Translations under genes and position numbers: made by a program | Notes under the pieces: generated by a model | Told to the model about the DNA's origin: nothing | The model's input: only the letters and a program-made list of their open reading frames with translations | Database searches by the model: none | From: Arctopsyche grandis | Lineage: Eukaryota; Arthropoda; Insecta; Trichoptera; Hydropsychidae | DNA length: 64,000 nt | Reading direction: 5' to 3' | Assembly (NCBI RefSeq): GCF_051622035.1 | Contig: NC_135358.1 | Location: forward strand, 15,190,001-15,254,000 | Shown: positions 9,401-47,506 of the stretch, in pieces | Position numbering within the stretch: the stretch's first letter is position 1 | How the letters are laid out: every line of letters starts with the position of its first letter

Positions 9401-12400
9401 GTACTATACTATAGAGTGAGTTCATCGCCCACGTAGAAACTACAGCGTGAACTTTTCTTCTTAAGATTGTATGCGACTATTCATAAAAAAATTAAGGAAA
9501 ATGTCAGTTATATACATAATACTGGCCTGTACAAGTATGTATGATTATTTAAAAGTTTATATAAATATGAATCAGGAGCATACCTATAATAGGGAAACCT
9601 TAGCAGGGATAAAATGATTATCAGTATACGGTTACACGACAATTGGTGCAAGTCCAAAAGGTTCAACGGCAAAATGTATTTATACTAATTTAATAACGCC
9701 CGCGATCTATACGATAAAAAGTACCATATACATCTATAAACATAATACAATAAAAAGTTACTTTTTCCTTTAAAATAGGAAAATTTAGGATTTTTGAACA
9801 TTTTGTCGCTTGAACATTATTTCCGTGGACATTTTGCCACGTGAACATTTTGTCGCGGGTACATTTTGTCAGTGCACTAATTTTCGGGTACATTTTGTCG
9901 TTGAACCTTTTGGACTTGCACCAATTGTCGCGTCCCCAAAATGATTATCAGTATACATATAAATTTCAAACATCTTCTTGATTGATATTTTTTTTTAAAT
10001 TAAAATTTCCACATAAACCAAAAAATTGCGGCTGGGTAAATTTTGAGATAATTGCACAAACGGAAGCGGTTATCCGGCTCGATGCCGATTTAGATTAATA
10101 TGTATAGTTTGCATACATGTAGTTATTAAAATGTTCCTAACATGTTATAGGTGAGATTCAAAGAGAGCCTGAAAGAAACATTATTTTTCATAACAATAAA
10201 ACCACACGCGCTATGCAAAAATAAACTTTCGGTAGAAACCAGCGTGGACAGCATCTTATAAATAGAAAAAAAACATCGGATGTGACGTCATGGTAAGACG
10301 CGTGGGTGTGTAGAGAAACCTCTTTATGACGAACATTAAAATGCACCGATTGTCTGGCCGTTGATATTTTACAAACACCTATACATGCATATGTGTAACC
10401 GCTTCGACTTTGAATAAATGGTTGACGTCACCTAAGGTTCGCCATATTAAAGGGTGAATGTTATTGATAAAAAAAATCGAAGCGCTGTTTATCTGATAAT
10501 AATGCGACAGGCAAATATGAGATGTATGTATACAGGCATATCATTGTAAGTTTTGAAATGTTTTTTAAATAAAAAGTTTTGAAGTCTAGGACTGTTTAAT
10601 CGTTAAAATCTGATTTTTAAGATTTAATTTTCAATCATTTCCATTCACTCGGTAAATGGAATGAAATGAAAAAATTTCATTTGTTTATTTATTTGAATCG
10701 AAAAAAAAAATATTAAACGACCGACCAATCACAAACGTCTCCGACCAATCCAGCCAATAAGAAACGACTTCGATGACAGCCGATCAGATACGAATTGAAT
10801 TACAAATGCCGTTTCGGTTTTACATATAAGACGATATATACGAAACTGACAATAAAAATGCACATATTTGGCGTAGCGGATTTGTTGAATATAAATCTTC
10901 TCGTCAATATGACCGAGATGACTCGATACGATCTGTATAAATTTGGAATTGGTCGGGTGCATTATTATGCAGAGTGGAAACTTTACTCAAGATACTAGCT
11001 TTTTTTTTTATTAAGAATTGTATTATGTTCGCTTGAACATAAAGTTAAATTTTAGTATCCTTTTCTTATTCAGACGAGCAAACTCGATCAATCCAAAACA
11101 AAAAGCACAAAATATTTTGAATATTGAATATACTGCATTTAATTCAGTTCGGTAGTACTAAGATAATTTAATCCCATTGAATATTCGTTGGGGGGGGGGG
11201 GCCTCATGTAGAGGGCTCTATTGGCTGACTTGATTGACGTCTAAAGTGGGCTTATTATATACTTTTTATATTAAAACATAAAGTAATCAATCAATACACT
11301 ATTGTGTGAACTAATAGATCTGTACTATGAGGAACCAGGCGCGGCTCGTGCATAAGAACTGCGGCGCTGCAGCACCCTCAGAAAAATTACAAACGAATTT
11401 ACAACTTGTATTTAGATATATTTGACATACTCATTAATAATGATTATGTCAAATATCTAATCATTCTTATTTAAATTATATTCACAAGTTGTAAATGTAT
11501 ACAAATGTGATTTTTTTTGTATTTTTTCTGGGGGTGCTGTAGCGCCGCAGTTCCTATGCACGAGCCGCGCCTGACAAGAACTATTTACAGGTCCAGAACG
11601 AAGCTCGTTCAGTTTCGGAGGATTGTACATAGACGATGTTTACATTAGAGCTCGAACATTAACAGTGCATAGAAAACGTAGATAACCTGCAATCGAAGCG
11701 GGGTATTTTTTGTTTACGTTCGCGTCGGACGAACGGAAACAACGCCAGTTCCCACACAAAACAATACACGGCGAAAGGGGAGCGAGCCGGTCGCGGTTAT
11801 GGCCGCGGGCGGAGCCGCTTGTGGCCTGCGCCTGGCAACGGTTGTGACAGCCGGGCAAGGTTTCGAGCGGGAGCCGGTGTCGGTGTCGGTGTCGGCATTT
11901 GTGCAACGTTATTGTTGTATCGATGTATGGTGGATGGTGGATGGTGGATGAATGGATGATGGTGGTGGTGTTACCGTTTCCGCAGATCGTCGTTCTCCTC
12001 GAAGAGCCGCTTGCTGTCGATCTCGAGCTTGGCCTTCTCGCGCGCGGTCTCGTCGAGCAGACGGCGCGCGTCGGCCAGCTCGTGCTCGTACATGCCCTTG
12101 ATGTTGGAGACCTCGCGAGTGACGGTCTCGTGCGAGGTCTGCACCTCGCGCGTGAGGCGCGAGTTCTCGCCCTCGAGGTGGCGCACCCGGTCGATGTAGG
12201 CGGCCAGCCGGTCGTTGAGGTTCATGAGGTCGGCCTTCTCCTGCTGGCGGGTTTGGCGCGCGGGGCTGAGCGGCGACGAGGGCCGCCCCATGGAGCCGCC
12301 GGCCACCGACGAGGGCCGCCCGGCCGACGGGGGGCGGCTCGAGGCGCGCGGCGTGCTGCTCGACTGCGGCGACTGCAGCCCCGACACCGACATGCTGCTC

Positions 12401-12441
12401 GACGACGTCACCGTCGTCGTCTTCTTCGTCTTGGAAGCCAT
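418..12441 (-). CDS. Lam: B-type nuclear lamin, 5' five coding exons (partial)
   Basis: Nuclear intermediate filament protein that polymerises into the lamina under the inner nuclear membrane. Coding exons read on the minus strand: 12441-11975, 1256-1124, 1032-895, 822-640 and 558-418. All junctions are GT-AG and the phases close exactly, giving 354 residues in the window. Exon 1 holds a Ser/Pro-rich head with an SPLSPAR mitotic-kinase-type site, then coil 1A beginning around [14 protein letters not shown]. Later exons hold coil 1B and the start of coil 2 ([31 protein letters not shown]), all close to fly lamin Dm0. The start is the first ATG before MASKTKK. The rest of coil 2, the nuclear localisation signal, the Ig-fold tail and the CaaX box lie beyond the left edge. 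Exon 1 is strongly GC-rich and the other exons are AT-rich. Family assignment is secure; B-type rather than A-type is inferred from similarity to Dm0. Confidence 0.96.
3103..3234. mobile_element. Short MITE with perfect 18-bp terminal inverted repeats
   Basis: The left end GGGTTGACACGATACGAG is matched exactly, inverted, at the right end. The element is 132 bp and non-coding. Flanks are AT-rich (TTAATACC on the left, TGTATAATA on the right); a TA or longer target duplication cannot be fixed. It lies in lamin intron 1. Confidence 0.75.
5060..5175 (+). mobile_element. tRNA-derived SINE-like unit
   Basis: A B-box-like core (GGATTCGAGTCCCACTGG, near 5106) follows an A-box-like stretch, as in the tRNA-derived head of a SINE. 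It does not fold as a full tRNA. A tail with TTGGTTGG follows. It is diverged and its boundaries are estimates. Confidence 0.45.
5390..5510. mobile_element. One end of a TAGGG/GTCCCG transposon relic
   Basis: The left edge TAGGGCTACCACGCGTCCCG resembles the end of the element at 50836-51638 (TAGGGTGACCATACGTCCCG). Short GTCCCGG and CCGGGA motifs recur inverted over the next 100 bp. No matching right end is visible nearby, so this looks like a broken copy or a related family. Confidence 0.45.
6485..6510. repeat. Near-perfect AT-rich palindrome
   Basis: The arms AAAATTAACAG and CTGTTAATTTT are separated by two bases, an 11-bp hairpin. A third partial copy of the arm follows at once. No known function. 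Confidence 0.7.
6598..6698. repeat. Foldback repeat with CGACAA/CATACGACATT arms
   Basis: The left arm at 6598-6621 and the right arm at 6675-6698 are inverted copies about 24 bp long with a few mismatches. They contain ACGACAA and CCATACGACATT. The motif vocabulary (CGACAA and ACATTTTG) echoes the ends of the elements at 9630-9937 and 18635-19100, so a shared origin is possible but unproven. Confidence 0.55.
9170..9300. mobile_element. Decayed relic of the PIF-like MITE family
   Basis: It shares ATCCATATAGAATGTACT followed by AAGAAT, and the end CCAGTATAAACAGACCTT, with the intact element at 27158-27359. The left end is eroded. Confidence 0.5.
9630..9937. mobile_element. Inverted-repeat element, family A copy 1
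   Basis: A 308-bp non-coding element. Its left end GGTTACACGACAATTGGTGC is mirrored at the right end, which reads ACCAATTGTCGCGTCCCC; pairing continues through CAAGTCCAAAAGGTTCAACG. The right half carries several spaced copies of ACATTTTGTCG. It is flanked on both sides by a perfect 19-bp repeat, AAAATGATTATCAGTATAC, at 9611-9629 and 9938-9956. A second copy lies at 18635-19100. The transposase superfamily is unknown. Confidence 0.85.
11189..11275. repeat. Dispersed repeat, copy 1 (G-run then CCTCATGTAGAGGGCT)
   Basis: A run of 13 G is followed by CCTCATGTAGAGGGCT and about 60 further bases. The same order recurs at 24916-24994, including TGAC followed by TTAAAGTG-like text. Class unknown. 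Confidence 0.6.
11336..11573. mobile_element. Foldback MITE with about 42-bp terminal inverted repeats
   Basis: The left end CAGGCGCGGCTCGTGCAT and the next 24 bases are mirrored at the right end with two mismatches. The AT-rich interior also partly folds on itself (TTAGATATATTTGACAT against ATGTCAAATATCTAA). The element is 238 bp and non-coding. The CAG start suggests a hAT-like family, but the 8-bp flanks do not match clearly. Confidence 0.8.
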
Positions 12442-12640
12442 AGTTACACCGGCCGCAGAATCAAAACAACGAAACACCGACTACCGCGCGGGACGGCGAC
12501 ACGCGCGCTACTGAAGCCGATGCCGCCCTGCCGCCCGCCCGCCCGCCCAACACCCACGCCGAGACGCGCACACGTGACCTGCTCCAAACCCCGCGTTCTA
12601 CGGCCATTGCTGACGTTTCGTTTTTATTTTAGAAATGACG
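12442..12640 (-). promoter_or_regulatory. GC-rich lamin leader and likely promoter
   Basis: Directly upstream of the lamin ATG, the DNA is GC- and CpG-rich to about 12600 and then falls abruptly to AT-rich. No TATA box is apparent. The frames open on the plus strand here are antisense shadows of the GC-rich exon. The promoter role is inferred from position and composition. Confidence 0.5.
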
Positions 12641-15600: not shown

Positions 15601-16261
15601 TGAACAAAGTAAAACTCGTGTAAATATAATAGGAAGACATTTAAATTTTGATTTAAAAATTTAACACTAATCAATAATGTTTTAATGCATCTTGAAAATT
15701 TTTAATATAAAACATTTTTGCACTGTTTACATGAAAAAGCAGTAATCTTTCTTCCGTGCTCTTTCGTTTGTGAAAAAGTGCTGAAACACCCACATATGTT
15801 AAGTAAATCCTAAGATATAATCATTTGCAGTCTTTTAATAACAGTTAATAACCATAAATTGTCTAATTGAAACTGATTGTATACATTCCTAATATGAATA
15901 ATCGCCACTCAATATACTTGTGCAGTACGAGTTCCAACGTTAACACTAAATATATAAAAAAATGTTATTGCGAGCTTTGCACAGAATAGTTTACTTCAAA
16001 CATTTATTTTAAACATGTATCTGAAACACACTGAAAGATTATTTCACTTGTACACTGATTTATATTATAAATTCAGTTTTGACATAGCGCATATATTTTA
16101 TATATTACATAGCCTAGATTGAAAATCATAGATCACTGAAATTTTGAAATATTTTTATACTATAAAAAAAATTGTTCTTCATACGAAAGTCACTTTCTTT
16201 ATTAATTACTTAAATTGTTGATAGTTTAAAAAAGTCTTACATCTAAATAGTGCTTGAAATA
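12641..16261. other. AT-rich intergenic stretch
   Basis: Lies between the lamin 5' end and the 3' end of the long frame at 16262. I see homopolymer runs and TTTATT motifs, of which one near 16197 could be a minus-strand AATAAA for the neighbouring transcript. A small inverted GGCCCAACCAGG and CCTGGCCCCC pair sits at about 13120-13180. No gene is supported. Confidence 0.6.
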
Positions 16262-17803
16262 TTAACAGGTGGTTTCAAGTAAAGGATCACAAGCGTCGGT
16301 GGGTTTTGACGATCGGTTGTCTTTAATAACTGCAGGTGTACTGTTCCACTCGGGAGAGTTTGCTGGTAATGGCTTGATGCATACTTCTGCGGGAATTGCT
16401 TCCGATTTTATGCAATTTGTTGTCTCACAATTAACAATTTTATTGAGAACATCTTTGCTTTGTAATTTATCCATTTCTGTGTTGTTTTCATTTGGCAATG
16501 TTTTATAATTCACTCTTGGGGACAAATGACGAGGAGATGGTTTCGGTGATATTGCAAATGGTTGGTTATTGCACAAGCAAGTTAATTCATTTTTATCATC
16601 CAGATGAAATTTTTCGGCGTTATGGGAGCATTTTGATGAATTTATTGATGATGTCTTTGGTTCATTTCTCAAGAAGACTGGAGATTTCTTCCCTACTCCA
16701 TACATTCTTTCGGCGCATAAGCGAGATGGACTAGGTTGAGATGATAGTAAATCTATTGGTTTTTCGATAACAGTTGGAGAAGTCTTAAAAACTCGATTTC
16801 CATTAGACTTTGAACATTTACATTCTGACGACCAGCATATATCACAAGATATGGAGGAAAATCTATCTAACTTCGCCTGTAAGAGACTGTTACAATTTGA
16901 AATTTGTAAAGTCGTAGAAGTCTCCAACTTCTTTCCATCGAAGCTATTTTTTTGCTTAGACAAAGATCTACTTTTTCTATACAATCGCTGTCGAGACTGA
17001 GAATTCTCTTTGGAGAAATCGTGAAGTACCCACGGTCCTGTGTCTGTTGGATGATCAAATGAAAGATGATTGGCTCGTGCCAATTTTCCACCAGTTTTAA
17101 AATCACTTGCATTCATCTTAGTCCACGGATCTGATGGAACGTAAACCAGTTGGCTGCTACTTTTATCTGCAAGCATAGGTCCTACCTTTAGGAGTAGTGG
17201 ATTAGCATCCGGTATAGATATCACGGAAACATTGGGAGAGGTGCGTTCACTGCAAATTTTTCGTGGACTGCACTTGGGCGAAAGACTCTTCTCACATTTA
17301 GCAAGTATAGAGCTAAGCGTACTGATTTCTGCATGTGGAGAAAATTCAACAGCTAAATTTGTTATCGAAGACCGTTGTACTGGAATACTTAGAGGTGGCG
17401 GTTTAATTGTTTGTTTTAGACCAGGTCGAGCTCCGAGTGAGTGAGAGCGTGGATGAGGTCGACGCGGAAGCAAGGCACGAGGGGGAGCAGGAGAGGAGGG
17501 GCAAACACATTTAGGAGTCACATCACTGTTACTTCGTGAGTGTATGGCACGCCATTCTTTTTTTATGGAACCATCAGGAGAACAAGCTTTAGTTATACTA
17601 ATGCTCACATTATGCTTATCTTTTATCGCCTCCAAATGATCATTGCTAGATATCAGAACGAGTCTTTGGATATCAGAGTCCCCCAAAGGTGAAAGACGTT
17701 TAGTGTTAATACCATCACTTCGATGTATAGGACTGTTAGGTATTCGATCGACACTTGTGTACTTTTTGGGGCCGGCCAAGTGGTTGGACCCGGCCCCTGC
17801 TAG
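16262..17803 (-). CDS. 513-residue ORF without an early ATG, downstream and in frame with ABHD17
   Basis: The frame is open for 513 codons from just after a TAG at 17806-17804 to a TAA at 16264-16262. Its first ATG is codon 210, so it cannot be a simple single-exon gene starting at its 5' end. The product is Ser/Pro-rich and probably disordered. It has basic, phosphosite-like stretches (SRSNSDVTPK, LSPKCSPRK), small Cys clusters (CDICWSSECKC; CSHN with a later CLC), and a SDPWTKM motif. I do not recognise it. Upstream of the TAG the frame stays open through 17872-17807, preceded by an excellent acceptor (T-run then CTTTCAG, exon start 17874). That exon joins in phase to a possible donor at 17980, 11 codons after the ABHD17 stop. 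It may be a readthrough or alternatively spliced ABHD17 tail, or a separate gene with an unseen first exon. Confidence 0.7.
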   Translation of the reverse strand, partial: LAGAGSNHLAGPKKYTSVDRIPNSPIHRSDGINTKRLSPLGDSDIQRLVLISSNDHLEAIKDKHNVSISITKACSPDGSIKKEWRAIHSRSNSDVTPKCVCPSSPAPPRALLPRRPHPRSHSLGARPGLKQTIKPPPLSIPVQRSSITNLAVEFSPHAEISTLSSILAKCEKSLSPKCSPRKICSERTSPNVSVISIPDANPLLLKVGPMLADKSSSQLVYVPSDPWTKMNASDFKTGGKLARANHLSFDHPTDTGPWVLHDFSKENSQSRQRLYRKSRSLSKQKNSFDGKKLETSTTLQISNCNSLLQAKLDRFSSISCDICWSSECKCSKSNGNRVFKTSPTVIEKPIDLLSSQPSPSRLCAERMYGVGKKSPVFLRNEPKTSSINSSKCSHNAEKFHLDDKNELTCLCNNQPFAISPKPSPRHLSPRVNYKTLPNENNTEMDKLQSKDVLNKIVNCETTNCIKSEAIPAEVCIKPLPANSPEWNSTPAVIKDNRSSKPTDACDPLLETTC

Positions 17804-17874
17804 CTATAGTAATTTTTCAGTTACGGAACTGGTGGTACCCGAACTGACTGTTGAGACTGGATTTGCATCTTCAC
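17804..17874 (-). CDS. Candidate short exon ending in TAG, in frame with the 513-residue ORF
   Basis: It starts after a strong acceptor with a polypyrimidine run and encodes GEDANPVSTVSSGTTSSV followed by TEKLL, a Ser/Thr-rich segment like the frame that follows. It ends at TAG with CTA after it. The entry phase is 1, matching a GT donor after 17980. A second AG directly before 17803 could instead serve as an acceptor of phase 0. Whether it is translated is inference. Confidence 0.45.
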
Positions 17875-18013
17875 CTGAAAGAATTAAAAAAAAAGGGTGA
17901 TAAAACAATATATTTCAGTGCATAATGTATTTGGCTTGGCTAATTTTCTGCTTTAACATTTAAATAAATAAACAAATACCCGTTTTGTTCTGGCCGGGAG
18001 CCTGCAGTCGTTG

Positions 18014-21000
18014 TCAGTTGACCAATTCAACAGACACAAATTGTTTAAGTCGTTCTACATATTGATTATACAGTTCGACATCATTGTGACCGGCTCCCTG
18101 TAATCAAATTTAACATATTAAAAATCACATTTTTCGAAAACATGTTTCATCACATTGTGGCGCGATTCATAAATTAAGTTCATACCTCCACCCATAGCGG
18201 CTCGACTGCCCTTTGGCATCTCTCATATATAGCAAGTCCATGTGAAAAATCTATTACTTCATCCTCAGTTCCATGAATAACGAGAACCGGAGATGTTACC
18301 TTTGGAACTTTGTCAATGCTGCAACATAAATAAAACACAAGCTTAAAAATAAGAAAAAAAATAATAATAAGTTTGTACACAAAATTTTAAAATGAAAAAG
18401 GAATGACGCAAGTGATATAAAAATTCATATAAGCAATCGAATGACTTGTTGAAAAAAAAAAAGGAACTCAAACACAGATAAAGGAAAGAAAATTCTAAAT
18501 AAAAGTACCCATGTATATCCAACGATTAAATTAAAGCCAGTCCCGTATCAAATTCACACTGCTCTAACCAACCGAACACTGATAACATAAATGAGTCACA
18601 AAACTTGTCCGTATAAAATTACTATACCTTTCATGGGGACGCGACAATTGGTTCAAGTCCAAAAGGTTCAACGACAAAATGTACCCGAAAATTAGTGCAC
18701 TGACAAAATGTCCATGGAAATAATCAAGAACCCCTAACATTTAAACTAATTCAATGACATCTTAAAATGATATTCAATGAGTCACAATGACATTCGCTTA
18801 AAATGTAATTGTTCAATTTAAATAAGAATATGTTGGTGCGGTTGAGAACACCTGTAATTTATACTAATTTAATAACATCTGCGATCTATACGATAAAAAG
18901 TACCATATACATCGATAAATATAATACAATAAAAAGTTACTTTTTCCATTAAAATAGGAAAATTTAGGATTTTTGAACATTTTGTCGCTTGAACATTATT
19001 TCCGTGGACATTTTGTCGCGGGTACATTTTGTCAGTGCACTAATTTTCGGGTACATTTTGTCGTTGAACCTTTTGGACTTGCACCAATTGTCGTATAACC
19101 ACCTTTCATACCATAAATTTAATATAGGAAATGTAGTGATAGTTTGAGAATGATTTCTCGTTTGCAAAAAATCCTAAATAACTAACCAAAACACATTCAA
19201 GTTCTAAATACAATGCACATCTGTATTATTCTGGCGTTATTATACTTATCAAATGACATAATTTGCAATATCATTTGCATAATATTTAAACATGATTATG
19301 AGGAAATCGAGTTCAAAATGCTATCAAACTTTTTATATACCTAAACCAATATTGCATAAAATTATCATATGTAGTATTATTTTAAAATATGTAAATCGTA
19401 TATATACACTTAAAAAACACTTGACATTTCGCAATAGTAATTTTCAACATGTATTTTTTTTTAATTCAGTTGATATTAAAAAAAATCGCAATCTAGTGAA
19501 TTGCAACAGCACAGCAAAAGCAAATTGACTTGTTTGTTTTATTATCATCATTATATCTTGTTAAAACATTAATAAAACAAATATGCAACGATCAATATGA
19601 AACGTCTGCAAAGTATCAATGTACAAATACTGATGCGTTTAAAATAAACAAACTCTAAAAAGTGAAATTGATGACAACAGTCTACTTAATCTAAGCAATG
19701 GGAATTGTTTAATTTGTATGCATAAATTTCGAAATAATCACAAGGAAAACGGTTCGTCTAAAGTTCAACTTCATAAACCGAGTAATGACTTAATTAATTG
19801 GTTGCTTCAATATAACATAAAAAATATCATTCATAAGTTTAAATTTAAGCACACTGAAATGAAAATCAAACTATGTACATGTTATAAGAAAATAATAGAC
19901 AAAAGAATCAATGACCACATTTCAAAGACAAAGGACACATTTTGAAATAAAACTACGGAGTCATAAATACATATATTCATAAGTCTCGAAATATGCGGTT
20001 GGTTACACATTTAATTGGTGTCATTTGTGGTAGCATATAAAACGAGATTGTGAACATGTCTTTCTACAGACTATCTTCATATTATAAAAACTAACTGTAT
20101 ATATGGTTTCATAGAATGCTTCAACAAATATTTCAATATTTAACTATATTTACTATTGACAGCTCGGACAGTTCAGTTGTTGATGGCAAATATGGGACTT
20201 TAATTTTTACTCATGCCAACGCCAAGAACTTGCCATTGTAAGATAAATTCTACTTGTAATATGTAGTCTTAACGAATGCGTAATTGTTAATACTTATACA
20301 TAGACATACATCTAGGTGAATATTAAACTTAATGCTTCATGTTAGAAATTTTATATGCGCTAGTAAATGATGTTGGAAAATTTACTCGAATCACAATAAA
20401 TTATTAATTTGAATTCTACGTCGCAAAACAAAACATCTGGAATAGTTGAAAGAAACAATATACTGAACTCGGAAAAATAAAGTTTTAGTATCCATTATTA
20501 TTACACGGTTTTAAGTTCCTTGGTTATACTTAGTGGATTGTGTAAAGTTGCTGACATTTAGAACATGTCATTGTATTTTTACTCAAATGTTGACGAGTAA
20601 CCCAGTATGCAGAGTAGATTCGTTTGCGAACAATAACATACCGATGTTGCTAGACGTCAGATATTTTATATTTCTTCTGGAGTTAAACTTCATTTGAAAG
20701 TGTTATTGTCGTCTTCCTGCCATTTACTGCATGTTGTTAGTTATGAAGTTTCAAAGTAAAACTCAAATTTACCAATGACTGCGAGTAATTTAGTGCTGTT
20801 GACTTAAAATCGTACCCTAATAAAGACCATGCAATTTAAATAAAAATTATGCTTTATAGTCTGTTCGCTGTAGGACTATATTCAGGACTAGATATAGGGA
20901 GGAATTAGCACGGGCCATAAACAATGTCTGTCCATGGTAGCCACCTACGTCCGAATACGGATTCGGCATTAGAAGAAAAATAGGTACATTCTGTCTCTTA

Positions 21001-23061
21001 CACCCCCCTCTTGAACAGTTTCAATAATTGAATACACAAATAGTAAGAAATTTTAAATATAATTATAATCCAAAATTACAAGGCCAAAAAGTTTTAATTG
21101 TGTCCAAAAGTGATTCGAATAGGTTATTGATTCTGACCAGCCGTCTCTGAATGAATTTGACTTCAAATGATGACGGATTATTCCTCGGTCGTTTATTACG
21201 TTACTGTATTTGAATATGTACACCAGGGTGTGGATTAACCGAGTTGTATTGTAGATTGACTTAGTAATGTTCACATCCAGTTTTTTCCAATTCTTCAATC
21301 GCGGTTAGCCATTTCGACTAATAAGCATTTCTGAGTTTCCAGACACAGTCCTCCGAAATCCACTGTCATGGAAGTTTTCTACTGGTATTATTCTTTCTCT
21401 TTGTAAACAAGCTTTCAATGATTGATCTTTTACCTCCTGTTTATTGTTTTGGTAGGCTTAGTTTCACCAATTTCTCCTGGCTCTTTGTTTCTGTACTTGA
21501 ATAGAATTTGCCATCAATTTTGAATAAGATTAATAATTTTATGTTTATTACAGCTACATACATGTATGTAATGAAAACAAAACCTCTAAAATTCAAAATT
21601 TCTAGGATAATAAATAATTTGTTTTTAATAAATATTGAATTAAAAGTCGAGATAAGTTGAAACATATTAGAGATTTTGGAAAATGTTTCTGGAATGATTA
21701 CTATGATGATCCTAGTACTGAGCCGACGAGACAATTATAGCAACGGAGAGTTAATTTAACGAGAATTGATTATAATTCCTCCTTTGCACCACATCAACTC
21801 TCTGGCCTGATGATACAAGAAACGAACGACCATCACAAATGGTATACGACTGTCGCCGAACCAATTTCCATGTCAGATGTTGACTTTCATTCGACGAGAC
21901 AACTTTTCTTCCATACAGTGTCTCCACTTCAGAGACTCCTTTTTTAAATGAGAATGTCATTCCATCTTCATTCGTATAGTGAATAAGTTTTAAATGAAAA
22001 AACAAAAACAAAACTTTATCTATTGTTAGTATATACATACGTACAAATGTAGATAAAGAAAAAATATTTTGTTTCAATGTAAAAATAAATAAATCAAAAC
22101 AAAGGAATTTTTTTTACGTTCTTCCAATGTTTACATCGCATTTCTCGAAAGGGACATCGTGTACGTTTTATCTAATCGTCTTTTTACAGCGGACGGACTA
22201 TAGTTCCGCGTGCAAGTATCGGATATTCTGCATTGTAGTCTGCACTGAAACGATAGAGAGTAGGTGAGAATGTTTGTTGGAGGTTTCGTGGTTTGTATAC
22301 CTGGGGAAGGCGTCGAAGAACCAAGTCCGTTTGGTGTTGGGGAAGGCGACTCGCATGCCGGACATGAGCGGGGAGTGCAAGATGACGGCGCCGACCTCGT
22401 AGCGCGAGGCCAGGTCTACGGTGGGAACGGTGCCGATGCTCTGGCCGTAGAGGATGATGTTCTCGGGGCTGACGCCGTAGCGGGTGCGGAGGGCGTGCCA
22501 GGCCGCCTCGATGTCGGCGTAGAGGTTCTTCTCGGAGGGGCGGCCGCCGCTGACGCCGTAGCCCGAGTAGTCGTACGAGAAGATGTTGCAGTTGATGCGC
22601 GTGCCCAGGCCCAGGTAGAAGCTGCTCATCTGGCCCAGGTCGACGGCGTTGCCGTGCGAGAACAGGATCGTGAACTTGGCGTCGGGCTGGCAGCGCACGA
22701 ACAGGCACGCGATCCGGTTGCCGCGGGCCGTGCGCGAGAAGAACCCCTCCACCGAGTCGCGGTCGCGCTCCGAGTACTGCCACTCGGCGCGCTCCGTCAG
22801 CTGCAGCGACAGCCGCGGCTCCTCTCCGGCTCCGGCTCCGGCTCCACTTCCTGTCGCTGTGGACGCGCTTCCGGTAGCCGTGGTGGTGGCCGGGGCTGCG
22901 GGGGCTGCGGTGGTGGCGGTGGCGGGGGCGGGGGCGGGAGCGGCCGGCAGCAGGGCGTAGGTGGGCTCGGGCGGCAGGAAGGCCAACTTGGCGGCGATGC
23001 GCGCGGGGCACGGCGGCCAGCAGAACAGGCAGCACAGCTCCGACAGCGACAGCCCGTTCAT
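18014..23061 (-). CDS. Abhd17: ABHD17 protein depalmitoylase (alpha/beta hydrolase)
   Basis: Serine hydrolase that removes palmitate from membrane proteins such as N-Ras and PSD-95 in vertebrates. Three coding exons at 23061-22301, 18318-18186 and 18097-18014 give 325 residues, close to vertebrate ABHD17 (about 310-330). The N terminus carries the Cys cluster CCLFCWPPC, the site of its own palmitoylation and membrane anchoring. Then comes an Ala/Pro/Thr-rich linker (about residues 40-82) and the hydrolase core with [17 protein letters not shown]. The nucleophile elbow GQSIG places Ser208; IHGTEDEV gives Asp273 and GAGHND gives His302, so the catalytic triad is complete. The start is the conserved MNGLSLSEL; no upstream in-frame ATG is seen. 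Exon 1 is very GC-rich and intron 1 is 4.0 kb. A long open frame follows the stop. Confidence 0.96.
18319..22300 (-). other. ABHD17 intron 1
   Basis: AT-rich intron of 4.0 kb. It contains the family A inverted-repeat element at 18635-19100. Elsewhere only short open frames occur (for example 19718-19945 plus, 21441-21734 minus and 21751-22077 minus), without splice context or recognisable homology. Confidence 0.65.
18635..19100. mobile_element. Inverted-repeat element, family A copy 2
   Basis: A 466-bp element with ends GGGGACGCGACAATTGG and CCAATTGTCG followed by TATAACC. It is flanked by a perfect 9-bp duplication, ACCTTTCAT, at 18626-18634 and 19101-19109. Its right two thirds match the copy at 9630-9937 closely, including the AAAAAGTTACTTTTTCC core and repeated ACATTTTGTCG units. 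The left arm is longer here and reads through TAGTGCACTGACAAAATG. No coding capacity is seen. Confidence 0.85.
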
Positions 23062-30900: not shown

Positions 30901-33195
30901 TGCCGTTACTTGCGAAAAATATGCAGACTCTCATAGAGAGTTTTCGGAATATTCGGGCGGTCCATAATGAGTCAATATATGTACATATATCATATAAATT
31001 TGATATTAATATTTGTAATCTTACATAATTTTAAATGTTTTTATTTTACCACATTGTGGTCAGATTGCTGTGTACAGCAATTTAACTGAAAAAATGGTGA
31101 TGTTTTTACCATTTAAATGTTGTGGTATCTATTAACTAGGATGTGCTTATTCTATATGTGTATGTATGTAGTTTTATCTATATCTGTATGTTGTTTTGTT
31201 TTAGGGCTATAATATTCATATAAACGGAAATTTTCATTGTACAGTGAGATACCGACAATTACATAGTCTTCATGCTCAACTTCATCAACAATATCCCACA
31301 CTTAAACTTCCACATTTTCCTCCAAAAAAAATTTTACCCTTGACAAATACGAAAGTCGAAGAGCGGCGACTTTTACTGGAAAGATATTTACAACTTGGTA
31401 ATTTCATTAATTTTAGCTCATACATTTGTACATATGTAGATAGGTTTCGTATTTATTAGTCATGAAAACTAACAAATTGCTTTTGTTTAGTTGGCCAAAA
31501 TTCAATACTGTCGAATTCTGATCTCTTGATTGGTTTCCTTGCATCTGCGCAGCAAGAAATTTTTCAAGAAAAACATGAAGGAGTACCAATGGACGTTCAT
31601 TTCATGACTGGTCTGAGGATACCGTTGATTGTGTCATCGGCGGATCGTTCTGATGTAGTATTAGAAAATGCTTGCTCGCACATACTATTACCGGCAGATT
31701 TGATAAAATATTTTTCATTATATATAGTTGAAATTGATGATGTAACGAATGAAATGGTTGTTTTAAAAAAACTTGAAGACTTTGAATCACCTTACATATC
31801 ATTGAAAATGTTCAAATCTAATCATAAAATTTGTATAAGGAAAAGGTACATAATTTTATACAGATTGGTCAATTATCGCTGATGTCATGAATATAATGTG
31901 TTTTATCGATTATTTGTGTAATGTTGTAGTTATTGGGACACGACATATGATATTGAATTGATGTGTGATCGAGTAGCATTAGAATTATTGTACGCACAAA
32001 CTGTTGCCGAAGTCTCAGCCGGATGGATAACGGCTACTCCTGCAATTTTGGACCATTTGCAAAAATGTCAATTGAACAATCAAAAAAAGGAAGTATGTTA
32101 TCAATGAAATTATTAGTGTTTGGTTGTCTATATTGAATTTATGAATACAAACATATTATCAATGTTACTTTTAGTATTTGGAACTAGCTCGTCTTCAAAG
32201 ACACTATGGCTATGTAATGGCTGGTCAAGGATTTGCTGAATGGGGCTCGGGAGGAGCTAGCAAAGGATATGCACAAATTTTACTCGGCCACTCTGGGCTT
32301 TTACTGTTGACGCAAGACCATCATGAGGCATATTTTAAAGTTATTCGAATGAGGTGTTGGCGTATTACAACTTTACACTCGGTAATTAATGACTCGTTGC
32401 ATACATACATATATTACTATAATGTATGTTTTATGTGTGTACATTTTTATAAAATTTCACGAATTGTGTTTTTACAGGAAGATGATGAGGATCGATCTCA
32501 AAATGGTCATGCTCAAAATGGTAGTGAGCATACTAATTCAAACGAGCCAAAGCTAGAATTATCTTTTGAGTATTTGATGAACAAAGATTCTTTGCAATGG
32601 GTGACCATTCATAGCGAACGAGCTATGTTTATGAGCGTATGCCTTCAGGTAATTTATTTATGTTTTTCAATAATTCTTATCCATACATTATTTATAGGTA
32701 CATTTGTATGTTTGTAGCTGTTTTGTTGTATCTATAACAGGAGTCGATTTATTTTGAATTTGTATAATGCTTTAACTTTTAGGCAGTTGTTGATGAACTT
32801 ATGTGTCAAAAGAATTATGGCGGGCTTCATGGAAATAGTGAACGAAGTACAGTGTATCGAGGAACATCTAAGAAAAACAGCCTTACCTATCTGAAGAGGG
32901 ATGGCTCCAGCCAAATAATCACTCCATCATCCTCTACTGATACGCTTAGTTCGGGGGTAAATATATTTCATAAGGAATAATTGGCTGTATGGAGTTAAAT
33001 GAAACGATGGAATTTGTGCTATCTTTCTGTTTGCTATGATTTTAGAACGGTGATAATAGCAGACCTGTGACATCTCCGAAAGAAAAGTTTTCTATCAGGA
33101 AGCTTTCTGAAAAGTTTGCGAGTGTGTCTTTTCGATCGGGCAATGACTGTGTAGAAAATAATGCCTTTGAAGGAATTGGCGATGACGATCTCTGA
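27934..33195 (+). CDS. Snx17: Sorting nexin 17 (PX-FERM)
   Basis: Endosomal adaptor that binds PI3P through its PX domain and NPxY cargo tails (LDL receptor family, integrins) through its FERM-like module, and sends them to recycling. Eight exons at 27934-27996, 31205-31397, 31491-31845, 31930-32092, 32175-32381, 32478-32648, 32783-32956 and 33046-33195 close in phase to 491 residues (human protein 470). It starts MHFSLPD as in vertebrates. The PX core has VRYRQLHSLH and LPHFPPKK; the FERM part includes YFSLYIVE, LEDFESPYISL, YAQTVAEV, MRCWRITT and LSFEYLMNKDSLQWVTIHS. The C terminus AFEGIGDDDL is the conserved family tail. Intron 1 is 3.2 kb, the others are short. Intron 5 (32382-32477) is 96 nt with no in-frame stop. 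Confidence 0.97.
29451..29878. mobile_element. CCGGCTTCGCTCGG interspersed repeat, copy 1
   Basis: Begins ACTAGCTGTATTAACCGGCT and reads on through TCGCTCGGTATTTGTAATAT. It ends TTTCGAAATTATATATTAGA. The second copy, 1.1 kb away, shares both ends and the CGCTTAAACATG interior. A TTTCGAAATTATATGTATAC inside at about 29662 suggests this copy is itself composite. Class unknown. Confidence 0.6.
30550..30742. mobile_element. CCGGCTTCGCTCGG interspersed repeat, copy 2
   Basis: Begins ACTAGTGGTTTTACCCGGCT and ends TTTCGACATTATATATTAGA, in the same direction as copy 1. It is about 190 bp, non-coding and shorter than copy 1. Confidence 0.6.
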
Positions 33196-37863: not shown

Positions 37864-38020
37864 ACCCACGCTCACGCCCACACCCCAACCCCAACCCCAA
37901 CCCCCACCCCTGACACATTTCGTATAGAGACTAAAACGTCACAAGTACCTGTGATCTTCACTCATACTTACAACACACACACACCCACACACGCACACTA
38001 TTTACATTTCAACATCCAAA

Positions 38021-40867
38021 ATGGCACTGTTCAGATCGTGTGCCCTTAGGGTGAATTCGTTCCCCGCTTCTCTCCGAGTACTCTCCAAGCCGATGCAGGT
38101 GCAGATGCAGTATTCCACTCAGAAGACGGCCGACACGGACATCGTGAAATCGGTTCTCATCTCGCAGTCTACAGATATATTCACGAACCTCGCACTGGAG
38201 GACTGGCTGTACAAGAATTCAAACTTTTCAAATCAACACGTTTTGTTGCTGTGGCGCAACGAACCGTGTGTCGTCATCGGCAGACATCAGAACGCTTGGA
38301 CCGAAGCTAATTTACCGTACTTGGCAGAGACGGGAATTCCTTTGGCTCGTCGTAACAGTGGAGGAGGAACCGTCTTCCACGATAGAGGCAATCTTAATTT
38401 GTCTTTCTTCACAACCAAAGAGCACTACGACAGGAAGTACAATTTGGATCTGATCGTTAGGGCTCTCTTTAGAGAGTTTGGAGTCAACGCATCCATCAAC
38501 GAGAGACAAGATGTCGTCGTGAAAGACAAATATAAAGTATCCTTTTTCACAATAACTTTTTTTTTATTATCATGTTTTCAGTAAGCTACCTTTCAAACCG
38601 ATGACATTATTCAACATAAATTAAAATTTTATTCGAATACTGAAAAGTATTCTTCATCTTTTGTACAATAATACTTCATATTTGAGGCAAATAGCTTAAA
38701 ATTTGTCTCAATATTACATATATATGAAGAGCACTAACAACCAGACACCTTCTTTAAATTTTGTTAGTTCTGTATATGGAATTTCAGTTGTACGAAAATT
38801 TGTAGAATTCGCTCAATAGTAAAATTTGTACTTTATCCCTAATTGCACAAAACCAAATTTTTTTCAGTAGTTTTTCGTTTCAATATAAATATAGTATTAA
38901 AATCATATTATAATTGTAATAAAACTCTTTACAATAGTATTATTCCTTAATGCATATTGTAAGATCTCCGGCACTGCTGCAAAACTCGGAAGGCCATCGG
39001 CGTATCATCATTGTACCCTTCTGGTCAATTCTAACAAGATAAGCCTCAGCAAAGCCTTGGCGAAACATGAGGTAAGATATATACATTTAAATAATAATAT
39101 TTCACATAGGTATTTCATGATATCATTTTCTCATTCCAAACATATGTAATATTCGTTGAAAATTTAACAAGAATCGCATATTTGACTTGAAATTTCTTTT
39201 CATTAATGTTGTTGAGGTATGTACATAAACACGGTTTAAACATGTGTGTAAATAAGCTCGACATGTTTGTATTATGATATGAAAGTGCGTGAATCTTATC
39301 GCAGTACCACATGCAACGTGCACGTTCTCTCCTCGTGATTTTTCTCGTTGCTTCGTGTTATTTCAGTTTGTTCATTGTTAAATAATTTTGTTTATACATG
39401 TGTTTTATACAGAAGACATTTCTCGCTCATTTGCCCTCTGGAGCTCAAAGTGTAAAATGATTTTTCAAGATAATGTTGACCTTCTTGCCACCATGTCTTT
39501 TTGATAACACGAAAATTTCCTCAATTACATATGTATGCTCATCCAAGTTTTTTATTTTAACGAGTGTGTATATCTTCTTATTGTATTTCATTTGCTTGGT
39601 GTGTTTTTAGCCATACTTTATTTGTCTAACGATATATACATTTGCACAATTGTTTATAACGTGTAGAGACAACCTCATTTTTTATTAATTTGTTTATTTT
39701 TTTTTATATCATTGAATACACATTCATATTGTTATCAAACGGAATGGTTTCACTTTTGTAATGAATTGAATTGGCACATATTTTCTTTTATTAATTGTTA
39801 TTAATACTGCCCGCTGAGTAGATAATACATGTGTATATTTATATTTGTTATTATAAACTTCAGTATTTGTGTAGAAAATGTCAGCATTTTCAAATTGGAT
39901 GTTCTGTATTTTCAGTCTGGTATCAAATCATATGCTACCCCATCTGTGAGATCTCCTATTCGTAATTTGTGCGAGGAAAATCCACGTATAACCGTTGATG
40001 GTCTTCAAACAGCTATCGGATGGGAATTCTTACGTACTCCTGCTTTTAAAATGGTAGACGGTGGACCCGAGCTCATTTCAAAGCAGAGAGGCTTCCAGTT
40101 CGTCAATCCTAACGACAATTGGTTCCCTGGTGAGTCAAAAATTGTTTATTTTTTATTATTGAATTTTGAAAATGAAGTATTTAACGTCACTTATTATATG
40201 AAACGATCTAGAAAAATCTTATTTGTTTGTAGTTGTATTAACCAAATACTTATCTTTATTAACCTTTATACTTGCATGTGATATAATATTTTTGTTATTA
40301 TTGTGAATTTTCGCCGAGACTAAAACACGAGCCTCAAATGTGTTATCAGTGTCGTTCGAATATTGTATTTTTAGCTATTAAATTTATCTCGATTGGTTTC
40401 ACAATAAAATTTTATTTATTTTTGTAGGCATAAACAAAATTCGAGAAGAGTTTGTTAGTTGGGAATGGCGTTTTGGCAGAACTCCCGACTTCAGCATCAG
40501 CCGTTCGTTTACTGTTCCCGTCAACCTATTGACTTCGACCAACTCGATGGATCAGTTTGTTCTCAAAGAGCAAGATAGCCAGAAATTGCGCATTGATATG
40601 GCCGTGGAAAAGGGGCTGATCAGTGACGTTACGCTCAACATTCCTCCGGGATTGATGCCTTCTGGATTTCACGGCGAAGCTTCGGTGGTAACTCATCTTA
40701 AAGGGAAGAAGTTTACGCCAGAGTCGCTCGCTTTCCTTCAAGACGCTTTGCAAACTTTACACCTCGATGGCGAGGCCGGTCCCAACAAAGAGAGAGAAGA
40801 TGGAAAACTCACCGAAAGAGAGCAATTCGTAGCAAAGTGCTTTGACCAAGTTATGAATACTGTTTGA
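38021..40867 (+). CDS. LIPT1: Mitochondrial lipoyltransferase 1 (lipoate ligase family)
   Basis: Transfers the lipoyl group onto the E2 subunits of 2-oxoacid dehydrogenases in mitochondria. Four exons at 38021-38536, 38964-39071, 39916-40129 and 40428-40867 join in phase to 425 residues. The first 35 residues are Arg-rich, acid-free and Ser-rich, typical of a mitochondrial presequence. The lipoyl-pocket motifs are RRNSGGGTVFHD and RGNLNLSF, and the Lys loop KYK|ISGTAAKLGRPSAYHH spans the exon 1/2 boundary. Next come CTLLVNSN, a mid part ending NPNDNWFPG, and the accessory domain with WEWRFGRTPDFSI. The length exceeds human LIPT1 (373) mainly at the N terminus and in the C-terminal domain. The exon 2 acceptor (ATTGTAAG) has a weak pyrimidine tract. 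A TATA promoter and GC-rich leader precede it. Confidence 0.95.
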
Positions 40868-45995: not shown

Positions 45996-47506
45996 CCCAT
46001 TTGAACCCACGCGGTCAGTTATGAACTTACACGATGTATGCCAGCGCGGTCATTCACGGCATTTTACAATTTTGCGTCGTAAAATAAAGGGATCACTCAG
46101 GCCGGCCGTAAAACCTTTCGTTACGCTTGGTTAGATGTTGGTGATGAATTTTAAGAAAGTCACACGAAATTAAATCAGTTCCTTTTGGAGTTTTGAGGGA
46201 ATAACATCGAGCGCTTTTCGACTTGCAGATATGTCGAAGAGAAAACATACGTAAGTTTTTTATTTTTACATATTTTTTATTTATCTTTGTGTTTCTAATA
46301 CAGTAGGACTTATTGTATAATATGCATAAGAGAAATCGCGTTTATATATCTCATATTCCTGGAAAAAAAAATCAAAAGTCGACGGAGTCGTATATGACTC
46401 CTTGGGATAATGACACATATTTTTTTCCAGAGAATGCAATTTTACTACTGCAGAGATACGGGAAGAAATTGATAATTGGGACGAGTCTCAACTTCCGGAT
46501 TCCACATACATACATATTACCACCCCTGGAAACTGATATTCGGTTAAAGAAAAAAGTAGGGTGGAAATCAATCAACCATTTAGTATAAATACGTATAATA
46601 AATATATGGGTGGGGTTGATCAAATGGATAGCCATATTTATAACTATAACATAAGTATTAGAGGGAAAAAATGGTACATGCCTATTCTGTTTTGGAACAT
46701 CGATGTAGCTGTGAATAACGCTTGGATTCTAAGCAAAAGTTTTGGTTGTAAATTTGATAAATTAGGATTTATCAGACAGGTAACAGAGACGTTGTGCAAG
46801 TGTTATGGTCAAAAACGAAAACAATTGGTCCCATTCAGACCCGGCAAAGTTAATCAAAATCAAAAGGAAGTTGGAAGACATTTGATATTGGTCAAACAGA
46901 AAAGGAGAAATTGTGGACACTGTAAAAATAAAACGTTTTCCGCTTGTGATAACTGTGAAATTCCATTGCATGACAAATGTTTTGTACCGTATCATAATAA
47001 TTAATTATTTTGTCTTCATGTATTTTGTTTTTACGACTTTTGAACCCAAAATCTCGTTTATGACATTTCTTCTTTTAAAAGGGTGCGCCCTTTTTTTTTT
47101 TGACGATGTGTATATGTCACAATATATGTACCTACGTGTGTTATGTTATGCGATTTGAAAATATCATTTTATCGAAGAGATGCGTGTTTGTTATTTTTAA
47201 AATTAATTTTATAAATTTCTTAACAATAAAATTACAAATAACCAGTGAGAAAGTATTATAACTGATTATGTGACTCCATTGTGATTTTTGTTTTATTTTA
47301 AAAAACATGTTTCATTAGCCCCAAAGGTCGTTCACGACACCACCTTGAAAAAAAATTAAAAATGTTGAAAAATCAATTAATTATCCATCCCTATCCTACA
47401 AAAAATATTTCCCATGAAATAACTCAAAGATTTTGGAAAATAAACGAAAAAATAGTCCTGGGCACATGGGACATGTGTTTTCACGCGAGCTCTGGGTTCA
47501 AATGGG
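45996..47506 (+). mobile_element. piggyBac-like transposon, internally deleted
   Basis: A 1511-bp element with perfect 14-bp ends CCCATTTGAACCCA and a TTAA at each border (45992-45995 and 47507-47510), the piggyBac hallmark. Subterminal GCGGTCA motifs repeat on the left. Inside are a possible transposase start (MSKRKHT, 46231) beside a GTAAGT donor and the C-terminal part of the transposase at 46561-47004. The middle of the transposase, with the first two catalytic aspartates, appears lost. Exact borders suggest a fairly recent insertion, mobilisable only by a transposase supplied from elsewhere. Confidence 0.92.
46561..47004 (+). pseudogene. piggyBac transposase, C-terminal remnant
   Basis: 147 codons read VEINQPFSINTYNKYMGGVD, which carries the third catalytic Asp of the DDD triad. 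Then come KKWYMPILFWNIDVAVNNAW and a terminal Cys-rich domain (CGHCKNKT, CDNC, HDKC and a final H) of the RING-like type that binds the element ends. The frame upstream has a stop at about 46534, and the residues before it (46313-46588, another frame) cannot be aligned with confidence. This is the C-terminal quarter of a normally 550-600 residue enzyme. Confidence 0.85.

What the first reader, a model, noticed from the sequence alone, without database searches (positions are those of the whole stretch)
16262..18097. A 513-codon open frame follows ABHD17 in the same reading frame across two stop codons
After the ABHD17 TGA (18016-18014, followed by CAA) the frame stays open for 11 codons to a possible GT donor after 17980. 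A strong acceptor starts an exon at 17874 that restores the same frame for 24 codons to TAG (followed by CTA), after which 513 codons are open. No ATG occurs in the first 209 codons, so translation must enter from upstream. Options are stop-codon readthrough, an alternative splice from ABHD17 exon 2 to the AG before 17803 (which would remove the His302 exon and fuse a long Ser/Pro tail), or a separate gene with a hidden first exon. A depalmitoylase with a long disordered tail would be new to me.
Basis: partly seen in the sequence, partly recalled or inferred. Interest (0 to 1): 0.75.

Follow-up and report, generated by a model that had tools for sequence, protein, structure and literature searches.

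The report
Depalmitoylase gene with two-stop readthrough
An insect gene for the depalmitoylase ABHD17 is followed, in the same reading frame and behind two stop signals that both look leaky, by coding sequence for a tail longer than the enzyme itself, so the ribosome probably sometimes reads through both stops to make a much larger protein.

Summary
On the minus strand, ABHD17 (three coding exons, 325 aa) ends at TGA 18016-18014. The frame then runs 34 sense codons across a 105-nt intron (17979-17875, inferred) to TAG 17806-17804, and 513 further codons to TAA 16264-16262. The 513-codon frame is coding: chance of staying open about 3e-14, position-specific base bias P 1e-9, and the ATG-free first 209 codons are themselves biased (P 3e-7). 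Twelve AUGs precede the first in-frame AUG, all out of frame.

The TAG is followed by CUAGCA and then, from +10, a 30-nt GC-rich hairpin, by far the strongest in the ORF. This is the layout shown to drive UAG readthrough of Drosophila dfr/vvl (PMC13170385). The TGA context, CAACGA, fits the CARNBA consensus. Splice routes that skip the TAG need weak acceptors.

Best reading: programmed double stop-codon readthrough giving an 874-codon ABHD17 isoform, a new member of the known insect readthrough class; my text searches found no report for this gene. No transcript, ribosome-profiling or cross-species data were available, so translation across the stops is inferred, not shown.

The parts
22301..23061 (-). 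ABHD17 coding exon 1 (ATG 23061; N-terminal Cys cluster [23 protein letters not shown] nucleophile motif)
   Evidence: splice model; Pfam Hydrolase_4 PF12146 E 6e-7, 29.4 bits over cut-off 27; N-terminal Cys cluster of the family as in PMC3506735 passages
18186..18318 (-). ABHD17 coding exon 2 (phase-0 donor)
18014..18097 (-). ABHD17 coding exon 3 with catalytic His302 (GAGHND), ending in TGA 18016-18014 in context TGA-CAACGA (fits CARNBA)
   Evidence: CARNBA follows 28 of 4443 TGA triplets (this one included) on both strands of 124 kb of this genome
17980..18013 (-). first readthrough stretch, 11 codons + 1 nt, to donor ACGG|GTATTT (inferred)
   Evidence: donor score 0.1; ABHD17's own donors 1.2 and 3.5
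17875..17979 (-). 105-nt intron (inferred) with a strong polypyrimidine acceptor
   Evidence: acceptor before 17874 scores 8.8, best of those scored in 17990-17500; best of 88 AGs in the tail is 3.2
17804..17874 (-). exon start; completes 34 sense codons after the TGA, ends in TAG 17806-17804
17798..17803 (-). CUAGCA, +4 to +9 of the UAG
   Evidence: CTAG follows 5 of 2584 TAG triplets, CTA 32 of 2584, this site included
17768..17797 (-). 30-nt hairpin at +10 to +39: GGGGCCGG-GU-CCAA-CCAC-UUGG-CCGGCCCC
   Evidence: the genome search found only this one match
16262..17803 (-). 513-codon tail ORF, ending TAA
   Evidence: no Pfam or PDB match at E <= 1; one match in own genome, itself
16198..16203 (-). 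AATAAA after the TAA; no AATAAA or ATTAAA between the ABHD17 TGA and 17407

Best explanation
One transcript carries ABHD17 and the tail. Most ribosomes stop at the UGA and make the ordinary 325-residue depalmitoylase. Some insert an amino acid at UGA-CAACGA and continue 34 codons, ending at the UAG. At that UAG a leaky CUAGCA context, and a stable hairpin whose first pair is at +10, slow termination so that a fraction continue for another 513 codons. The product is an ABHD17 of 874 codons (325 + X + 34 + X + 513) in which the complete catalytic domain carries a Ser/Pro/Lys-rich tail with several Cys pairs. SHOWN: the frames, the coding character of the 513 codons, the predicted hairpin, the stop contexts. 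INFERRED: the 17980/17874 splice, readthrough at either stop, and any role of the tail (most plausibly targeting or protein binding of a regulated isoform).
For: 1) The 513 codons are coding from their start without ATG, so translation enters in frame from upstream. 12 of 12 AUGs before the first in-frame AUG of the modelled message are out of frame, which argues against reinitiation or a dicistronic start. 2) The strongest acceptor near the start of the tail (17874, 8.8) plus the best exon-3 donor (17980, phase 1) keep the ABHD17 frame and keep the TAG. 3) Hairpin right after the TAG: 36-nt fold -20.6 kcal/mol. Of 1506 36-nt windows in the ORF, the ten strongest all lie at 17803-17794 (to -22.1; mean -3.3, sd 2.7); the next independent one is -11.2. 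6 of 12,793 minus-strand windows in 64 kb, this site among them, are as stable. 0 of 2000 dinucleotide shuffles of the local 304 nt match it. In 124 kb, 8 of 14,564 stop triplets are followed by a 36-nt fold of -20 or lower (only stretches with at least 12 G+C were folded), and two of those 8 are this site. 4) Stop contexts: TAG-CTAG 5 of 2584, TGA-CARNBA 28 of 4443, this gene included in both. 5) Precedent: dfr/vvl readthrough needs UAG, the +4 to +9 block and a stem-loop from +9/+10, with distance and stability critical (PMC13170385 passages and section 18); CUAG (with UGA) and CARNBA (with UAG, in yeast) as readthrough motifs (PMC4132726 passages); 22 double readthroughs and extensions from 4 to over 1000 aa annotated in flies (PMC4528330 passages). 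6) No AATAAA in the 1.37 kb of genomic sequence after the TGA, so the ABHD17 mRNA plausibly includes the tail.
Against: No RNA, ribosome-profiling or comparative data could be obtained; no relative of the tail was found in the searches made. The 34-codon bridge is too short to show coding by itself. The 17980 donor is mediocre (0.1). No structure beyond chance follows the TGA (z -0.13 and -0.17). Against shuffles of its own GC-rich letters the UAG hairpin is only moderately unusual: z -2.19, 6 of 200, and over 107 nt z -1.71, 10 of 200; 36 nt z -2.45, 8 of 500, and 60 nt z -1.81, 23 of 500. It is 30 nt, below the 35-nt minimum of PMC13170385, and 1012 fly genes pass that screen, only some of them readthrough genes. 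Stem-loop candidates have sometimes shown little readthrough in heterologous cells: SACM1L and ACP2 (PMC4132726) and several fly candidates in yeast (PMC5100048). In human cells CUAG worked about 3-fold less well with UAG than with UGA. In many species only UGA readthrough was seen (PMC4528330), and it is lost more often at TAA and TAG stops (PMC5100048 abstract). Two readthroughs in series should give little product unless both are efficient. Two composition scores did not support the frame: a kinase-trained codon score ranked it lowest of six frames (judged faulty), and an amino-acid-usage score ranked it first overall but not in two of three thirds.
Confidence: 0.6

Rival explanations
1. 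Alternative splicing bypasses one or both stops: exon 2 (18186, phase 0) to 17803 or a later phase-0 AG, or 17980 to 17799/17796, which would remove the UAG.
For: Phases fit: 18186 with 17803, and 17980 with 17799 and 17796. Some AGs deeper in the ORF score like real acceptors, e.g. 16514 3.2, 17328 1.9, 16876 1.8, 17185 1.3 (best of 88).
Against: AGs at 17803/17799/17796 score -9.5/-11.2/-5.6 against 2.3, -1.0 and 8.8 for ABHD17's own and the 17874 acceptor. The exon-2 route removes the catalytic His. Deeper acceptors leave the coding bias of codons 1-209 wholly or largely unexplained. Splicing does not explain a leaky UAG context with a hairpin at +10. The splice scores use a recalled consensus, not a matrix trained on this genome.
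Confidence: 0.12
2. The tail is the 3' part of a separate gene whose own ATG exon lies upstream (in the ABHD17 intron or farther) and splices into 17874, with readthrough at the UAG only, or into an AG past the UAG.
For: No homology links tail and ABHD17 in the searches made. The 17980 donor is weak, so 17874 could have another partner. An ATG-donor candidate of phase 1 exists at 20693-20642 (17 codons, donor 2.1).
Against: The scan of 22300-18319 (at least 15 codons, donor at least 1.0) gave 3 ATG-donor candidates, none coding-like by eye, against 9 on the opposite strand as control; shorter or more distant first exons were not scanned. The UAG still has to be crossed if 17874 is used. ABHD17 frame, strand and the missing poly(A) signal all fit one transcript.
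Confidence: 0.12
3. The UAG is not fixed: a recent nonsense mutation, polymorphism or assembly error in an otherwise single-readthrough (UGA) or spliced gene.
For: One assembly only; no second haplotype or relative was available (one search found one match).
Against: A random stop would be unlikely to arise exactly 6 nt before the ORF's strongest hairpin and in front of CUAG.
Confidence: 0.06
4. A-to-I editing turns the UAG into UGG in the transcript.
For: A 12-nt perfect inverted match (within 23 nt at 83%, 17816-17794 with intronic 18637-18615) spans the UAG A. UAG is, from recall, a good ADAR triplet.
Against: About 3% of bases of this pre-mRNA outside the intronic repeat element lie in such a match. 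The A sits at the end of the duplex. It would not explain the UGA.
Confidence: 0.04
5. Reinitiation, internal entry or a non-AUG start makes the tail as a separate protein from a dicistronic mRNA.
For: FlyBase lists dicistronic genes (PMC4528330 abstract, passage).
Against: 12 of 12 preceding AUGs are out of frame and the first in-frame AUG is codon 210, while codons 1-209 are coding. Near-cognate starts were not examined.
Confidence: 0.06

Closest known systems
Drosophila dfr/vvl UAG readthrough (PMC13170385; abstract, passages, sections 15 and 18 seen)
   Same: UAG stop, readthrough-prone +4 to +9 block, stable stem-loop beginning at +9/+10
   Different: Here the hairpin is shorter (30 nt against about 49-51), the UAG is the second of two stops, and a UGA precedes it; readthrough is shown experimentally there and not here
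Insect double readthrough genes (PMC5100048 abstract, passages and section 28 seen; PMC4528330 passages seen)
   Same: Two in-frame stops followed by a coding third segment; UGA first with C at +4
   Different: Those rest on multi-species conservation or ribosome profiling; here one genome only. The final segment is long (513 codons) against a usual 8-300 aa, within the published range of 4 to over 1000
Vertebrate UGA-CUAG readthrough genes (PMC4132726; abstract and passages seen)
   Same: CUAG directly after the stop
   Different: UAG instead of UGA; in the four mammalian genes 12 nt after the stop sufficed, without RNA structure
ABHD17/FAM108/AHO-3 serine hydrolases (PMC3506735 passages seen)
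   Same: N-terminal Cys cluster, C-terminal alpha/beta-hydrolase domain, similar length (AHO-3 is 332 aa)
   Different: AHO-3 ends with the hydrolase domain; here 548 further codons follow the stop. A figure legend there mentions an omitted C-terminal sequence of the Schistosoma homologue, not examined

Membership tests
Programmed stop-codon readthrough | Open, protein-coding frame directly downstream of the stop in the same frame | tested here: met
   513 codons after the UAG: P open 2.7e-14, base-bias P 1e-9. For the 34 codons after the UGA alone: inconclusive.
Programmed stop-codon readthrough | Leaky stop context | tested here: met
   UGA-CAACGA (fits CARNBA) and UAG-CUAG; the consensus sequences are from PMC4132726 passages, where they were described with the other stop codon each
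Programmed stop-codon readthrough | Stimulatory 3' RNA structure (frequent, not obligatory) | tested here: met
   Predicted at the UAG: hairpin at +10. At the UGA: not met. The 35-nt minimum length of PMC13170385 is not met by the 30-nt hairpin. Stimulation itself untested.
Programmed stop-codon readthrough | No alternative splice or in-frame ATG explains translation | tested here: inconclusive
   Sequence-only scoring disfavours both; no RNA data
Programmed stop-codon readthrough | Stop codon and frame conserved across species | not testable with these tools
   I had no insect genome beyond the window's own
Programmed stop-codon readthrough | Extended protein or ribosome footprints past the stop | not testable with these tools
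   No ribosome profiling or proteomics
ABHD17 depalmitoylase | Alpha/beta-hydrolase domain with Ser-Asp-His triad | tested here: met
   PF12146 above cut-off; [14 protein letters not shown] and GAGHND in the spliced protein (motif roles from recall)
ABHD17 depalmitoylase | N-terminal Cys cluster | tested here: met
   [18 protein letters not shown]; family feature per PMC3506735 passages
ABHD17 depalmitoylase | Depalmitoylating activity | not testable with these tools
   needs assay
Selenoprotein (UGA as Sec) | SECIS element in the 3' UTR | tested here: not met
   No Rfam match up to E 5 in 15800-18400; that Rfam holds SECIS models is from recall

The most novel reading that the evidence does not exclude
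A two-gate recoding switch: a UGA with a hexanucleotide context signal and a UAG with a structural signal act in series, giving three ABHD17 isoforms (325, 360 and 874 codons). The last ties the depalmitoylase to a tail longer than the enzyme, conserved in related insects and regulating where it removes palmitate.
Probability: 0.35. Interest if true: 0.65.

Novelty: new member of a known kind. Interest (0 to 1): 0.5.

Why it matters
If translated, this extends the stem-loop UAG signal defined experimentally in Drosophila dfr/vvl to another insect gene, as the second gate of a double readthrough. It would also give a depalmitoylase a long regulated tail that gene predictors would leave in the 3' UTR. 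It is directly testable with a reporter and with long-read RNA.

Tried and rejected
Codon model trained on 19 kinase matches from this genome: it scored the true frame lowest of six (-0.221 per codon; others -0.194 to -0.026). I reject it because minus-strand loci were not oriented, 8 of the 19 had stops, their pooled GC3 (0.54) does not match the ORF (0.31), and ABHD17 exon 2 and the extension were not cut in proper frame in that script. An amino-acid-usage score with recalled frequencies put the true frame first of six over the whole ORF (-9.5 against -12.8 for the next) and in the last third, but not in the first third (-8.6; best -3.0) or the middle third (-3.2; best -1.0). Neither is used as evidence.

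Selenocysteine: no SECIS match. Repeat origin of the hairpin: one genome match only, itself (that search skips very common words). Second ABHD17 gene: none found; the one hit outside the locus is a 37% match over 72 residues on C2. PDB search with ABHD17 gave 6 sequences at E <= 1e-3, other alpha/beta hydrolases and RTX toxin entries, none named ABHD17. Relatives of the tail in viral contigs and genome contigs: none (six short peptide patterns each, in collections where an insect gene is not expected). Pfam and PDB for the tail: none at E <= 1; other family libraries were not tried.

Prior reports: 'stop codon readthrough'+CG33096 gave 0 papers; ABHD17+readthrough gave 3, which by their listings concern other matters; CG33096 gave one, on C. 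elegans AHO-3; 'stop codon readthrough'+hemiptera gave 9, none by its listing about a readthrough gene of a hemipteran. The fly and mosquito candidate lists are in supplements I could not read, so I cannot say that fly ABHD17 is absent from them. Structure prediction was not run: without an alignment a Ser/Pro-rich tail would give no usable model.
Full report
WHAT IS THERE. On the minus strand ABHD17 is encoded by 23061-22301, 18318-18186 and 18097-18014, giving 325 residues with an N-terminal Cys cluster and the [14 protein letters not shown] and GAGHND motifs. Exon 1 matches Pfam Hydrolase_4 above cut-off. From recall, vertebrate ABHD17 proteins end at the same place, just after ..LKQFVS.EL.N, so the TGA is the normal end. 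It is the only ABHD17 found in the genome; the one other hit is 37% over 72 residues. The genome has 475,669,232 bases in 189 contigs. Of the contigs seen, C1 and C4-C13 are 29.5-42.7 Mb long and those from C45 up are under 0.14 Mb (C2, C3 and C14-C44 not seen in that list).

After the TGA the frame continues 11 codons and one base to a GT (17979). The exon from 17874 completes 34 sense codons to TAG 17806-17804, then 513 codons run to TAA 16264-16262. Read through, the message holds 874 codons with stops at 326 and 361.

IS THE TAIL CODING? Yes. P(513 open codons) at its own composition is 2.7e-14, and the longest run in 200 shuffles of 16262-18099 was 165. Base use by codon position is biased (chi2 52.7, 6 df; median of 1542-nt tiles 7.3). 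The 209 codons before the first Met are biased on their own (40.7, P 3e-7), so the ATG-free part is translated from upstream. All 12 AUGs between the TGA and codon 210 are out of frame. The 34-codon bridge is too short to test by itself. Two composition scores gave no support: a faulty kinase-trained codon score ranked the true frame last of six, and an amino-acid-usage score ranked it first overall but not in two of the three thirds.

HOW DO RIBOSOMES GET THERE? Splice scoring with a recalled consensus matrix gives 8.8 for the 17874 acceptor, against 2.3 and -1.0 for ABHD17's own acceptors. AGs that would remove the TAG (17803, 17799, 17796) score -9.5, -11.2 and -5.6. The best exon-3 donor is 17980, at 0.1 and phase 1, exactly the phase 17874 needs. 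Of 88 AGs in the tail, six score between 1.1 and 3.2, but the first of these is at 17328, so using them would leave at least the first 158 codons unexplained. In the large intron 3 ATG-to-donor candidates of 15 or more codons with donor score at least 1.0 were found, against 9 on the opposite strand as control. No AATAAA or ATTAAA lies between the TGA and 17407; AATAAA occurs at 16646 and 16444 within the tail and at 16203 just after the TAA.

THE STOP SIGNALS. Counting the UAG as +1 to +3, CUAGCA is +4 to +9. A 30-nt hairpin occupies +10 to +39: eight all-GC pairs, a two-base bulge, four more pairs and a CCAC loop. Its 36-nt fold is -20.6 kcal/mol. Among 1506 36-nt windows of the ORF the ten strongest all lie here (down to -22.1; mean -3.3, sd 2.7), and the next independent one is -11.2. 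Over the 64 kb, 6 of 12,793 minus-strand windows (this site among them) and 7 of 12,793 plus-strand windows reach -20.6. No shuffle of 2000 of the local 304 nt gives such a start. Over 124 kb (window plus six 10-kb stretches), 8 of 14,564 stop triplets in any frame are followed by a fold of -20 or lower (stretches with fewer than 12 G+C in 36 were not folded), and two of the eight are this UAG and a TAG 4 nt below it. Against shuffles of its own GC-rich letters it is less striking: 6 of 200 and, over 107 nt, 10 of 200 fold as well, and 8 of 500 or, over 60 nt, 23 of 500. CTAG follows 5 of 2584 TAG triplets and CARNBA follows 28 of 4443 TGA triplets, this gene counted. These tests were chosen after looking, so the individual figures should not be multiplied. 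After the TGA, in the spliced message, there is no structure beyond chance (z -0.13 and -0.17). The genome search found the hairpin sequence once.

PRECEDENT. In Drosophila dfr/vvl, UAG readthrough needs the stop identity, the +4 to +9 block and a stem-loop formed by about +9 to +59. Moving the stem-loop 3-9 nt away or weakening it lowers readthrough (PMC13170385, abstract, passages and sections 15 and 18). The present hairpin is in the same position but shorter than the 35-nt minimum of that study's screen, which 1012 fly genes pass. CUAG after UGA drives readthrough in four mammalian genes, about 3-fold less with UAG; CARNBA stimulates readthrough in yeast, there after UAG; two mammalian candidates with RNA structures showed little readthrough (PMC4132726 passages). 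Insects have abundant readthrough with a bias to UGA and C at +4, RNA structures after 9-10% of readthrough stops, and 35 double readthroughs in Anopheles, 13 of them at adjacent stops (PMC5100048 passages). FlyBase annotated 328 genes, 22 cases of double readthrough, with extensions from 4 to over 1000 aa, many of the longer ones looking disordered; in many species only UGA readthrough was seen (PMC4528330 passages). Ribosome profiling reported two double readthroughs in flies (PMC3840789 passages).

JUDGEMENT. Double readthrough is the best-supported reading (0.6). The UAG step is better supported than the UGA step. The main gaps are the absence of RNA data and of related genomes. An A-to-I route for the UAG has weak support from a 12-nt intronic complement over the UAG, at about the 3% chance level. 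As a kind this is known; as a gene it appears new by my searches, with the caveat that published candidate lists are in supplements I could not open.

TAIL. 547 sense codons in both segments: Ser 14.8%, Pro 9.1%, Lys 8.8%, Cys 3.7%, Met 0.7%. FoldIndex of 497 windows unfolded, against 30 of 275 for the enzyme. No Pfam or PDB match at E <= 1 and no second match in the genome. Cys pairs (CVC, CDIC, CKC, CLC) could be acylation or metal sites; this is speculation.

Noticed in passing
18642-19093: A 452-bp element with 70-nt terminal inverted arms (99% complementary, 312 nt between them) holding repeated GACAAAATGT motifs: a MITE-like insertion in the large ABHD17 intron.
   Followed up: partly
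17794-17816 and 18615-18637: 23-nt inverted match (83%, with 12 perfect pairs reaching the UAG A) between the UAG region and the upstream intron; could pair in the pre-mRNA, but such matches cover about 3% of bases outside the repeat element.
   Followed up: partly
22800-23000: ABHD17 exon 1 holds an Ala/Pro/Thr/Gly low-complexity insert (about residues 40-80) between the Cys cluster and the hydrolase domain, in GC-rich DNA.
   Followed up: no
11971-12480: Minus-strand intermediate-filament exon (Pfam Filament E 3e-22), lamin-like from recall.
   Followed up: no
37955-38584: Lipoyl protein ligase catalytic exon (LplA-B_cat E 9e-40) on the plus strand.
   Followed up: no
46537-47004: Fragment of a DDE_Tnp_1_7 (piggyBac-type, from recall) transposase, E 5e-10.
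   Followed up: no
32175-32717: Sorting nexin 17-like FERM C-terminal domain exon (E 2e-20) on the plus strand.
   Followed up: no
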